Notes under the pieces: model-generated
The model's database searches: none
Told to the model about the DNA's origin: nothing
The model's input: the letters and a program-made list of their open reading frames with translations, nothing else
Program-made: the position numbers and the translations under genes
Source: [Empedobacter] haloabium
GTDB lineage: Bacteria > Pseudomonadota > Gammaproteobacteria > Burkholderiales > Burkholderiaceae_D
Direction of reading: 5' to 3'
DNA length: 64,000 bases
Assembly (NCBI GenBank): GCA_008011715.2
Contig: CP136508.1
Span: 5,580,001 to 5,644,000 of the forward strand
In this document: positions 8,748-64,000 of the stretch, one piece after another
Numbering within the stretch: position 1 is the stretch's first letter
How the letters are laid out: each line of letters starts with the position of its first letter

Positions 8748-8800
8748 GGTGTCAGGCACCTGTCTCAGGGCGTTCCGCCCTGAGACAGGTGCCTGACACC
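8748..8800. repeat. Class B hairpin repeat, perfect 25-bp stem, copy 1
   Basis: Arms 8748-8772 and 8776-8800 are perfectly complementary around TTC. The outer arm is GGTGTCAGGCACC, the middle TGTCTC and the inner part AGGGCG. The copy at 62946-62999 has the same outer and inner parts but a different, still paired, middle. It lies between the convergent hemB and LysR genes and contains the LysR stop codon. Confidence 0.9.
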
Positions 8801-9715
8801 GGTGTTTGCTCCCAGGTCCGGCTCGGCACGAAGCACCTGCTCCACCCACTCCCCGAACACCCGCACCTTCGGCGCGGCCATCCTCCCCTTCGGATACAGC
8901 AGCGACACCGGCATCGGGGCCGGCGGCGTCTCGGGCAGCAGCTCGACCAGCGCGCCGCTGGCCAGGTGCCGCCGCACCTGATACGCCGCGGCCTGCGTGA
9001 TACCGATGCCCTGCAGCGCGCACAGCACGTTGGCATCGGCATCGTCCACCGCCACCGGACCGCCCACCTGGGCCGTCTCGATCCGGCCATCCACGATAAA
9101 GTCCCAGTCGAACGGCCGGCCCGTGCGGCCCGAGTAATGCACGATGCCGCGGTGCGCACGCAAGTCGGCGATCGTGCGCGGCGTGCCATGGGCGGCCAGG
9201 TACGCCGGCGCGGCGCAGGTGACGAAGCGCATGCTGCCGACCTGCCGGCCCACCAGTGCCGAGTCCTGCAGCGCGCCGACCCGCAGCGCGCAATCGATGC
9301 CCTCCTGCGTCAGGTCGGCCAGCCGGTCGGCCAGGCTGACCGTGACCGTCAGCTCGGGCCAGGCAACCAGGAATGCCGCCAGGTGCGGCAGGACGACGTT
9401 GCGGCCGACGGCGCCGGGCAGCTCGACGCGCAAGGTGCCGCGCGGCCGCGCCGCCGCCGTGCCCCGGAAGCACTGCTCGGCGGCGTCGATGGCAGCCAGG
9501 ATCTGCACGCACTGGTCGTAGTAGGCCGCGCCATCGGTCGTCAGCGCCAGCTTGCGGGTGGTGCGCAGCAGCAGCGTGGTGCCGAGATAGGCTTCGAGCT
9601 TCTGGATCGTGGCCGTCAGCGCGGCGCGGGGCAGGCCCAGCGTTTCGGCCGCCTTGGTAAAGCTGTTGGCTTCGACGATCCGTACGAACGTCTGCATGGC
9701 CTTGACCTTGTCCAT
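8765..9715 (-). CDS. LysR-family transcriptional regulator
   Basis: Probable DNA-binding regulator of the divergent MFS exporter gene; 316 residues. The N-terminal winged helix-turn-helix is MQTFVRIVEANSFTKAAETLGLPRAALTATIQKLEAYLGTTLLLRTTRKL with the usual LysR spacing. An effector-binding domain of two Rossmann-like lobes follows (residues about 90-295). The start at 9715 begins MDKVKAMQTF. The last residues, around TGVRHLSQGGTP, are encoded inside a palindromic repeat, so the native C terminus was probably replaced. The effector cannot be told from sequence. Confidence 0.93.
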   Translation of the reverse strand: MDKVKAMQTFVRIVEANSFTKAAETLGLPRAALTATIQKLEAYLGTTLLLRTTRKLALTTDGAAYYDQCVQILAAIDAAEQCFRGTAAARPRGTLRVELPGAVGRNVVLPHLAAFLVAWPELTVTVSLADRLADLTQEGIDCALRVGALQDSALVGRQVGSMRFVTCAAPAYLAAHGTPRTIADLRAHRGIVHYSGRTGRPFDWDFIVDGRIETAQVGGPVAVDDADANVLCALQGIGITQAAAYQVRRHLASGALVELLPETPPAPMPVSLLYPKGRMAAPKVRVFGEWVEQVLRAEPDLGANTGVRHLSQGGTP

Positions 9716-62938: not shown

Positions 62939-64000
62939 CCCCGCCGGTGACAGGCACCGATCCGAGGGCGGTAACGCCCTCGGATCGGTGCCTGTCACCA
63001 TGGGTCTTGTTTGCTTCATACGCGGCCAGATAGATCACGGCCGCCAACCGCCTCACCAGCTCCTCCATCCGCTCCGCCGGCACCTGCGCGTAGCCCAGCA
63101 TCAGCCCATTCCAGGCAGTCGTACCCTGCACCGCGTGCGTCGACAACGCATTGACGACGATGCCTTCCCGGCGCGCCCGTTCCACGATCGCCAGGTCCGA
63201 CAGCGCAGCATCGGTAAAGCGCAGCGACAGGTGCATGCCGGCCGACGCGCCATCGACCGTGGCGATGCGGCCCAGGTGCCGGTCCAGCGCCGCCACCAGC
63301 GCATCGCGCCGCTGCCGGTACAGCCGGCGCATGCGGCGCAGGTGCAGCGCGAACTGGCCACTGGTCAGGAACTCGGCCAGCGCCAGCTGCTCGGCCACGC
63401 GGCCCGCGGCGGCCGACTGCGCGCGCATCGTGGCCAGCTGCGGCGCCAGCTCGGGCGGCACCACCAGGAAGCCGATGCGCAGGCCGGGAAACATGGTCTT
63501 GCTGAACGTGCCGCAGTACAGCACCGGCGCGTCCGGCGCCAGGCCCTGCATCGCTGCCAGCGGCGGACCGTCGTGGCGGAATTCGCTGTCGTAGTCGTCC
63601 TCCACGATCAGCGCCCCGCAGGCGCGCGCGCCGTCGATCAGCGCCATGCGCCGCGCCAGCGACAGCACCGTGCCGACCGGATACTGGTGCGACGGCGTCG
63701 CATAGATCAGTTTCGGCCGGCGCGTGCGCCAGTCCTGCGGCGTCGGCGCCATGCCGTCGCCATCGACGTCGATGCCTTCGACCGCCAGCCCGGCGCCGCG
63801 GAACGCGGCCAGCGCGCCGCCATAGCCCGGGTTCTCCATCCAGACGATATCGCCCGCGTCGGCGCAGGCATGGGCGCACAGATCCAGGCTGCTCTGGCTG
63901 CCGTCGGTGATGAACACCTGCGCCGGCTCGCACACGACGCCGCGCGACGCGCGCAAATGGTCGGCGATGGCCGCGCGCAGCGCCGGCACCCCGGCCGGGT
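62895..64000 (-). CDS. MocR-type regulator (GntR HTH fused to aminotransferase), 5'-truncated
   Basis: The window ends inside the gene; 367 C-terminal residues are seen and the N-terminal GntR helix-turn-helix lies beyond the edge, so the regulator assignment is from the aminotransferase part. Fold type I PLP domain: PAGVPALRAAIADHLRASRGV, FITDGSQSSLDLC, ENPGYGGAL, the aspartate motif VEDDYDSEFRHDG and the PLP lysine in YCGTFSKTMFPGLRIGF. The native end is near AAYEANKTHG; the last 30 or so residues are encoded by a palindromic repeat and by antisense of the TonB receptor gene. Confidence 0.88.
   Translation of the reverse strand, partial: PAGVPALRAAIADHLRASRGVVCEPAQVFITDGSQSSLDLCAHACADAGDIVWMENPGYGGALAAFRGAGLAVEGIDVDGDGMAPTPQDWRTRRPKLIYATPSHQYPVGTVLSLARRMALIDGARACGALIVEDDYDSEFRHDGPPLAAMQGLAPDAPVLYCGTFSKTMFPGLRIGFLVVPPELAPQLATMRAQSAAAGRVAEQLALAEFLTSGQFALHLRRMRRLYRQRRDALVAALDRHLGRIATVDGASAGMHLSLRFTDAALSDLAIVERARREGIVVNALSTHAVQGTTAWNGLMLGYAQVPAERMEELVRRLAAVIYLAAYEANKTHGDRHRSEGVTALGSVPVTGGVKTRSPRARTSNGR
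62946..62999. repeat. Class B hairpin repeat, perfect 25-bp stem, copy 2
   Basis: Arms 62946-62970 and 62975-62999 are perfectly complementary around GTAA. The outer GGTGACAGGCACC and inner AGGGCG match the copy at 8748, but the middle six bases are GATCCG instead of TGTCTC, with matching changes in the other arm. It lies between the convergent TonB receptor and MocR genes. Confidence 0.9.

What the first reader, a model, noticed from the sequence alone, without database searches (positions are those of the whole stretch)
8748..62999. Long perfect hairpins with covarying stems (class B repeats)
Two elements 54 kb apart (8748-8800 and 62946-62999) each form a perfect 25-bp stem with a 3-4 base loop. 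Outer 13 and inner 6 stem bases match apart from one compensated pair, while the middle six differ (TGTCTC against GATCCG) with complementary changes in the other arm. Such compensated change points to selection on the folded form, or to an element that spreads or is copied as a hairpin. Both lie between convergent genes. They resemble REP/BIME elements mobilised by RAYT (Y1) transposases, but no such gene is in the window.
Basis: partly seen in the sequence, partly recalled or inferred. Interest (0 to 1): 0.72.

Follow-up and report, generated by a model that had tools for sequence, protein, structure and literature searches.

The report
Self-matching palindromes at gene ends
This bacterium carries about a hundred short DNA palindromes, mostly right after genes, and when one arm of a palindrome mutates the other arm usually changes to match, which is best explained by one arm being copied from the other.

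Summary
Both hairpins are perfect 25-bp stems. They belong to a family with 92 exact-ended copies in this genome. Of 72 copies read with flanks, 62 are perfectly paired although inner stems differ. Elements lie just after stop codons, often between convergent genes. They look like REPINs (inverted REP pairs), but none of the genome's five Y1/RAYT-type genes is flanked by them, nor any in two relatives; cousin repeats flank RAYTs elsewhere in the genus. The new result comes from orthologous sites: at 16 sites shared with a relative, 28 stem pairs changed on both arms, 6 on one; at 16 sites shared with a more distant relative, 31 and 36, where shuffling gives 3.6 doubles. The inner-stem rate per pair (9.4%) resembles one-site non-coding divergence (8.6%; fourfold sites 17.9%), and transversions are common. 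That fits one arm being copied from the other (quasipalindrome template switching) better than rescue through wobble pairs. Loop inversion was not significant; selection and exchange between copies are not excluded. A new variant of a known kind.

The parts
8748..8800 (.). Element 1 (T type): GGTGTCAGGCACC + 12-bp inner stem, 3-nt loop, mirror arm
8748..8772 (+). left arm of element 1
8776..8800 (+). right arm of element 1
8740..8747 (+). C-type flank (TAACCCAT, holding the stop codon; family ARACCCAT)
8801..8808 (-). H-type flank (CAAACACC read toward the element; family GAAACACC)
62946..62999 (.). Element 2 (A type): GGTGACAGGCACC + 12-bp inner stem, 4-nt loop GTAA, mirror arm
62946..62970 (+). 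left arm of element 2
62975..62999 (+). right arm of element 2
7714..8742 (+). gene ending 5 bp before element 1: delta-aminolevulinic acid dehydratase (PF00490, E 5e-140)
8765..9715 (-). LysR-type regulator ORF whose stop codon lies inside element 1
60473..62938 (+). TonB-dependent receptor gene ending 7 bp before element 2
62895..63989 (-). aminotransferase-fold ORF that reads through element 2

Best explanation
The two hairpins are members of a REPIN-like family of about 100 short, non-coding palindromes (ends GGKGNCAGGCNCC) lodged at the 3' ends of genes in part of the genus Pseudoduganella. SHOWN: at orthologous sites the two arms of an element change together. INFERRED: a mutation in one arm makes a quasipalindrome; during replication or repair the strand folds back on itself and the polymerase copies the other arm, so the mismatch is either erased or written into both arms. 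Copying in both directions would let stems drift at about the ordinary substitution rate while staying paired. INFERRED: the family was spread by a single-strand (Y1/RAYT-type) transposase that is no longer linked to it, or no longer present, in this genome. Its place after stop codons is shown with my own gene calls; an effect there (3'-end protection or blocking read-through) is a guess.
For: Copies and pairing: 73 exact-ended elements; 62 of 72 perfect; in an alignment of 68 of these 72 (67 distinct rows) 13 of 25 pairs vary, each with two-sided changes: 199 double-changed cells, 2 G-U, 4 unpaired; shuffled mean 51.9 doubles. In place, G065 v G000: 16 shared sites, 399 scored pairs: 365 same, 28 changed on both arms and paired in both genomes, 6 one-sided; shuffled mean 1.2, max 7 of 2000 on a first scoring that had one site mispaired and 29 doubles. 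Six of the 16 differ in the stem by exactly one two-sided change; in L349/L122 and L351/L087 the loop is identical too. G028 v G000: 16 sites, 366 scored pairs: 31 double, 36 single, 7 other; shuffled mean 3.6, max 10. The two sets cover 27 different G000 sites. Rate: inner pairs 18 of 191 changed together (9.4%), 4 one-sided, against 8.6% per aligned non-coding site and 17.9% per fourfold site. Spectrum: 12 transitions and 16 transversions among the paired changes, non-coding 126 and 145, fourfold 420 and 950; a G-U route would give almost only transitions. Natural control: in 29 of 53 G016 elements with the same outer core, positions 14-19 pair in 86 of 174 cells, shuffled mean 100.6.
Against: Loop inversion, the second footprint of template switching, is not significant: 4 of 32 orthologous loops inverted, null mean about 1.8. 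Loops turn over faster than the model asks: 22 of 51 aligned loop positions differ between G065 and G000 and only 5 of 16 loops are identical. Paired changes are not evenly spread: position 5 (T/A, 7 of 15) and position 15 (A/G, 6 of 15) are hot, which unbiased correction does not predict and which could reflect exchange with other copies. In the G028 comparison one-sided differences (36) outnumber double ones (31), so correction is incomplete or has slackened there. The rate match is loose: 9.4% is near the non-coding value but half the fourfold value, and aligned non-coding sites are biased to conserved ones. The G016 control is limited: its well-paired positions 20-26 (200 of 203) hardly vary. 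No mutation was watched happening.
Confidence: 0.65

Rival explanations
1. Selection for a perfect hairpin (for example a two-way transcription stop or an mRNA 3'-end shield): mismatches are harmful and are rescued by compensating mutations.
For: Elements lie at 3' ends: 54 convergent, 47 tandem, 1 divergent, 1 inside, 3 at locus edges, of 106 (the two window sites are mis-scored there as 1 tandem and 1 inside); median 16 bp from the 3' end, 128 of 155 within 40 bp; tandem sites nearer the 3' end in 43 of 47. T is somewhat enriched in the 12 bases after the hairpin (0.32 against 0.205 in intergenic DNA). Large bacterial populations can fix compensated pairs quickly (established theory).
Against: Single-pair two-sided changes at sites with the rest of the stem identical; transversions in 16 of 28 paired changes; the same-ended G016 family is not kept paired at positions 14-19; no T tract: T-runs of 4 or more beside 8 of 206 ends, and the terminator scan of 8400-11600 does not list element 1 (element 2 not scanned).
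Confidence: 0.17
2. Exchange between copies: an element is overwritten by another perfect copy (ectopic gene conversion or re-insertion at the same site), so both arms change at once.
For: Hot positions 5 and 15 are highly polymorphic in the family; a few orthologues differ across much of the inner stem (L161/L121, L197/L272, L346 8018/L119); loops are identical in only 5 of 16 G065/G000 pairs; cores differ G/T at position 3 on both arms (L150/L128, L154/L132).
Against: 13 of 16 G065/G000 orthologues differ by only one to three two-sided pairs, 2 by none and 1 by six; polymorphic positions 19, 20, 24 and 25 changed in only 1, 2, 0 and 0 of 15; the 10-bp flanks are mostly kept between G065 and G000 (not at L346 8018, L348 2054 and one side of L362).
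Confidence: 0.14
3. Recently moving RAYT/REPIN family: a RAYT acts in trans, only perfect hairpins transpose, and what we see are fresh copies.
For: REPIN-like ends and spacer; related cores flank RAYTs in relatives (L251, L257, L264, L321); 8 of 51 G065 elements have an empty G000 counterpart by flank mapping, some doubtful.
Against: None of 5 (G000), 5 (G028) or 4 (G065) Y1_Tnp loci has the core within the 1.5 kb flanks; the flanking repeats I read belong to other classes; paired changes occur between orthologous, not new, copies.
Confidence: 0.04

Closest known systems
REPINs (REP doublets forming hairpins; Bertels and Rainey 2011, PMC3116915, passages read)
   Same: Two inverted conserved ends, less conserved spacer, extragenic, high copy, hairpin; [quoted passage not shown]
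   Different: Here the whole 25-bp arm is Watson-Crick perfect in most copies, no RAYT is flanked by the repeat in the genome, and change at orthologous sites is shown to be two-sided.
Group 3 TnpAREP REPs (PMC8266576, passages read)
   Same: Perfect palindromic REPs handled as folded single strands.
   Different: GTAG near only 6 of 206 ends; no linked TnpAREP found.
Quasipalindrome correction / template-switch mutation (PMC8794818 abstract and discussion read; PMC8604942 start of abstract seen; van Noort 2003 seen only as a reference entry in PMC10434271)
   Same: Homogenised inverted-repeat arms; two-sided changes without intermediates.
   Different: Here many natural sites of one repeat family show it (tested at 27 sites of G000), at roughly the ordinary substitution rate; loop inversion not significant.
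Intrinsic terminators
   Same: GC-rich hairpin just after stop codons, often between convergent genes.
   Different: No T tract; stems far longer than needed (established knowledge).

Membership tests
REPIN | two inverted conserved ends with a less conserved spacer, forming a hairpin | tested here: met
REPIN | many copies, extragenic | tested here: met
   106 elements with up to 3 core mismatches in the fetched stretches; 5 overlap a called gene by 8 bp or more
REPIN | RAYT gene in the same genome flanked by the same repeats | tested here: not met
   0 of 5 Y1_Tnp loci in G000 (1.5 kb flanks; exact core; up to 3 mismatches); also 0 of 5 in G028, 0 of 4 in G065 (exact core)
REPIN | excision or transposition | tested here: inconclusive
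   occupied and empty sites differ between species but junctions are not clean
GTAG/CGTC-tagged REP super-families | tag tetranucleotide beside the palindrome | tested here: not met
   GTAG 6 and CGTC 2 of 206 ends within 12 bp
Intrinsic terminator | T tract directly after the stem | tested here: not met
   T-run of 4 or more in 8 of 206, though T is enriched (0.32 v 0.205); element 1 not listed
Intrinsic terminator | stops transcription | not testable with these tools
   needs Term-seq
Quasipalindrome template switching | arms homogenised in place | tested here: met
   28 double v 6 single; 31 v 36 with 3.6 doubles expected
Quasipalindrome template switching | loop (spacer) inversion | tested here: inconclusive
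   4 of 32, null mean about 1.8
Known structured RNA (Rfam 15) | match above gathering score | tested here: not met
   0 matches in the window

The most novel reading that the evidence does not exclude
In this lineage about 100 natural palindromes are self-templating: nearly every arm mutation is soon erased or copied across, so the stems drift at about the neutral rate while staying paired, without selection on RNA and without a linked transposase. Apparent 'covariation' would then be a mutational signature, a false positive for structure-based RNA discovery, and the elements natural reporters of template switching in vivo.
Probability: 0.43. Interest if true: 0.75.

Novelty: new variant of a known kind. 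Interest (0 to 1): 0.6.

Why it matters
Covariation is usually read as proof of selection on RNA structure. Here the same signal appears at single orthologous sites with a mutation spectrum and rate that look ordinary, which argues that DNA-level copying between arms can produce it across a whole repeat family. That makes the question of how long stems stay perfect directly testable, and warns against reading covarying repeats as functional RNAs. It also suggests that a REPIN-like family can persist without a linked RAYT.

Tried and rejected
Plain chance: rejected (reversed-pattern control 0 matches). Only two copies: rejected. A linked RAYT in the genome: looked for with exact and up-to-3-mismatch cores in the 1.5 kb flanks of the five Y1_Tnp matches; the best is GGTGACTGACACC, one mismatch, beside L032, but it belongs to another repeat (TCGTGTCCC..GGGACACGA). 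RAYT trees: the clade holding L264, L265 and L321 (six rows, 100/98), of which L264 and L321 are flanked by GGTGACAGGCTCC and L265 by GGTGTCTGTCACC, has no member from G000, G065 or G028; seven rows without an NHxH motif may be wrong ORF picks; one search uses 38 NHxH-bearing genes and leaves out the others. Intrinsic terminator: no T tract. Known RNA family: none in the window. Loop inversion as proof of template switching: not significant. Loop orientation relative to the gene: 22 TNC v 13 GNA on the sense strand of 47 tandem sites, no clear bias. Target-site motif from empty sites: junctions not clean enough. A first hand-registered count of paired changes (27 double, 53 single, 8 other over 13 sites) was spoilt by indels and replaced.

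Dropped rows: alignment A1 leaves out 4 of 72 elements with indels or several mismatches (2071467, 2668958, 2922346, 3887900); one of the 73 exact-ended elements (6116085) was not yet fetched. The G028 count uses 16 loci; BLAST-linked loci L156/L123, L186/L110, L193/L106, L203/L098, L210/L135, L284/L108 and the second L190 element were not scored because no element lay at the mapped place in one genome or the link was partial or weak; L163, L166, L168, L169 and L172 were left out because the G028 sites they cover are also held in L150, L154, L158, L190 and L159. 17 pairs out of register and 19 with gaps were set aside, 1. In the fetched G065 stretches 51 elements were found; one search shows 78 matches for G065 on both strands, which is its cap. 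Of the 51, 16 were scored, 8 had an empty G000 counterpart and 27 had no counterpart among the fetched loci; some of the 8 are doubtful, three mapping to one locus (L093). Position counts leave out the decayed L348/L121 site (15 of 16). Only 29 of the 53 G016 elements were used. Gene calls are from my own codon-score caller, not a standard one; it scored the two window sites as tandem and inside, whereas by eye both are convergent.

Full report
WHAT IS THERE. The two hairpins are real and perfect: 25 of 25 pairs each, loops of 3 and 4 bases; as single DNA strands with short flanks they fold at -35.7 to -39.6 kcal/mol, z -10.6 to -11.9. Element 1 starts 5 bp after the stop of a delta-aminolevulinic acid dehydratase gene, element 2 starts 7 bp after the stop of a TonB-dependent receptor gene. 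The facing minus-strand ORFs (LysR regulator; aminotransferase fold) run into the hairpins.

COPIES. The window is 5580001-5644000 of a 6.48-Mb single-contig genome, G000. The core GGTGWCAGGCACC occurs 85 + 81 times, its reversed control 0; 45 T-type and 28 A-type hairpins have both ends exact, and a pattern that would also allow a mismatch at position 5 finds the same 73. 19 more have a GGGG core. In the fetched stretches 106 elements were found allowing up to 3 core mismatches. The genus is taken to be Pseudoduganella because relative G003 has matches at the same contig positions as P. umbonata CECT 7753 records. A covariance model of 68 elements matches 16 of 74 genus genomes at E 1e-6 or better: 78 matches, the cap, in G000 and G065, 69 in G028, 48 in G078, 46 in G075, 34 in G095, 29 in G003, 20 in G020, 16 or fewer in eight others; both strands are counted. 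I did not check how perfect the stems are outside G000, G065, G028 and G016.

PAIRING. Of 72 elements read with flanks, 62 have no mismatch. On 68 of them (4 dropped) the 12 inner pairs and pair 5 vary, each with two-sided changes: 199 double-changed cells, 2 G-U, 4 unpaired, 99.8% paired; slid registers give 26-39%. The search required matching outer cores, so the inner 12 pairs are the unbiased test; for 94 elements with an unmismatched core, inner pairs 14-24 are 1013 of 1034 Watson-Crick, shuffled mean 678, and 77 of 94 are perfect over 24 pairs. Loops are GNA/GNNA or their complements in 76 of 103; that GNA loops are very stable in DNA is recalled, not from a call.

IN PLACE. The question is whether the arms change together at one site. 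G028 (flanks 81-96% identical): 16 sites, 366 scored pairs, 292 the same, 31 changed on both arms with both genomes paired, 36 one-sided, 7 other; shuffled 3.6, maximum 10 of 2000. G065, closer (flanks 85-96%): 16 sites, 399 scored pairs, 365 same, 28 double, 6 single (a first scoring with one mispaired site gave 29 double, shuffled 1.2, maximum 7). Four of the six one-sided changes are in one decayed element (L348 2054/L121). Six of the 16 differ in the stem by one two-sided change only; in L349/L122 and L351/L087 the loop is identical too. Independent mutation at the observed non-coding divergence (8.6%) would give about 33 one-sided and less than one matching two-sided change among 191 inner pairs (my arithmetic); observed are 4 and 18. 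Loops change faster: 22 of 51 aligned loop positions differ.

HOW IT MOST LIKELY WORKS. If every mismatch is resolved by copying one arm from the other without bias, pairs should change together at the one-site rate; observed 18 of 191 (9.4%), against 8.6% non-coding and 17.9% fourfold. The change types are ordinary: 12 transitions and 16 transversions, non-coding 126 and 145; rescue through G-U would favour transitions. This fits template switching within quasipalindromes as described in PMC8794818 (abstract and discussion read) and PMC8604942 (start of abstract seen). PMC8794818 itself calls the evidence for upkeep of short RNA stems circumstantial and loop inversions very rare. Against it here: loop inversion is not significant, loops turn over quickly, positions 5 and 15 change far more than the rest, and correction looks weaker in G028 (146 of 165 inner pairs in 15 core-perfect elements). 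Not every repeat with these ends behaves so: in the 70-bp G016 family with the same core, positions 14-19 pair in 86 of 174 cells, no more than shuffled (100.6), while its positions 20-26 pair (200 of 203) but hardly vary (29 of 53 copies examined).

WHERE THEY SIT. With my own gene caller, 54 of 106 lie between convergent genes, 47 tandem, 1 divergent, 1 inside, 3 at locus edges. By gap length convergent gaps would hold 18% (P about 3e-15 for 54 of 102) and divergent 23% (P about 8e-11 for 1 of 102); the loci were chosen for holding elements, which should inflate the convergent background. Distance to a 3' end: median 16 bp, 128 of 155 within 40 bp. In the window 7 convergent gene pairs were called, and a third long hairpin (11033-11088) also lies between convergent genes. 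There is no terminator-like T tract, though T is enriched after the hairpin (0.32 v 0.205).

RAYT. G000 has five Y1_Tnp matches. None has the core in 1.5 kb flanks; four carry other repeats: GGGGTCAGACCC (L031), GGGGTCAGTCCC (L033), GGGGTCAGGTCTG (L034), GGTGACTGACACC within TCGTGTCCC arms (L032). G028 (5) and G065 (4) likewise lack the core. In relatives the same kind of core does flank RAYTs: GGTGTCAGGCACC upstream and a broken copy downstream of L251 (G016), GGTGCCAGGCACC on both sides of L257 (G016), GGTGACAGGCTCC on one side of L264 (G032) and on both sides of L321 (G078). So the family is REPIN-like in build and probably in origin, but orphan here as far as linkage goes.

IN PRINT. A search for the core strings found 29 papers, of which the 15 listed are not on bacterial repeats; one for Massilia with extragenic palindromic found 6, none of whose titles or abstract starts concerns such repeats; one for REP with compensatory, hairpin and transposase found 2, both read in passages. 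PMC3733652 (GTAG and CGTC repeats) has no mention of Massilia, Janthinobacterium or the core. I found no report of this family in that library; subscription journals are mostly not in it.

VERDICT. Confirmed observation; a REPIN-like family without a linked RAYT whose arms evolve together in place, most likely by templated copying. A new variant of a known kind; interest 0.6.

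Noticed in passing
window 11033-11088: A second hairpin class (arms CGGAGGCTGTCCCCGATTT, 19 bp, 18-nt centre) in another convergent gap; GGGGACAGCCTCC repeats of this kind flank RAYT L256 in relative G028.
   Followed up: partly
hairpin positions 5 and 15 (family numbering), G065 v G000: Two hot base pairs, ten bases apart: position 5 flips T-A/A-T in 7 of 15 sites and position 15 A/G in 6 of 15, always on both arms. Unexplained.
   Followed up: partly
hairpin loops, G065 v G000: 22 of 51 aligned loop positions differ, far above the flank divergence, with a strong GNA/TNC bias in 76 of 103 G000 loops. 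Unexplained.
   Followed up: partly
L035 (G000:C1 about 6058749-6059033) and similar hits in relatives: A Y1_Tnp homologue that reads DQLQ where the HUH histidines (NHxH in the others) should be; 11 of 11 relatives searched have a weak Y1_Tnp hit starting at profile position 17-24 that may be its orthologue, not read by me. Possibly domesticated.
   Followed up: partly
L033, roughly 1000 (G000:C1 about 2.0999 Mb): AGATGTGTATAAGAGACAG, a string I recall as a Nextera adapter, lies inside an ORF of this one-contig genome next to a RAYT: likely assembly contamination.
   Followed up: no
L041, L046, L051 (G016): 53 copies of a repeat with the same GGTGTCAGGCACC ends but an unpaired middle (the listed ones are 70 bp); a RAYT (L251) has a full copy upstream and a broken one downstream.
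   Followed up: partly
L216-L246: The same two-ended core occurs in Cytobacillus/Bacillus, Neobacillus, Bordetella petrii and several MAGs of other phyla, so this end sequence is widespread or convergent.
   Followed up: no
window 8765-8800 and 62946-62999: Both window elements are among only 5 of 106 where a neighbouring ORF runs into the hairpin; the LysR ORF takes its stop codon from it.
   Followed up: no
G065:C1:4578819-4579645: Three elements with identical model scores within 830 bp in G065, perhaps a local tandem cluster.
   Followed up: no
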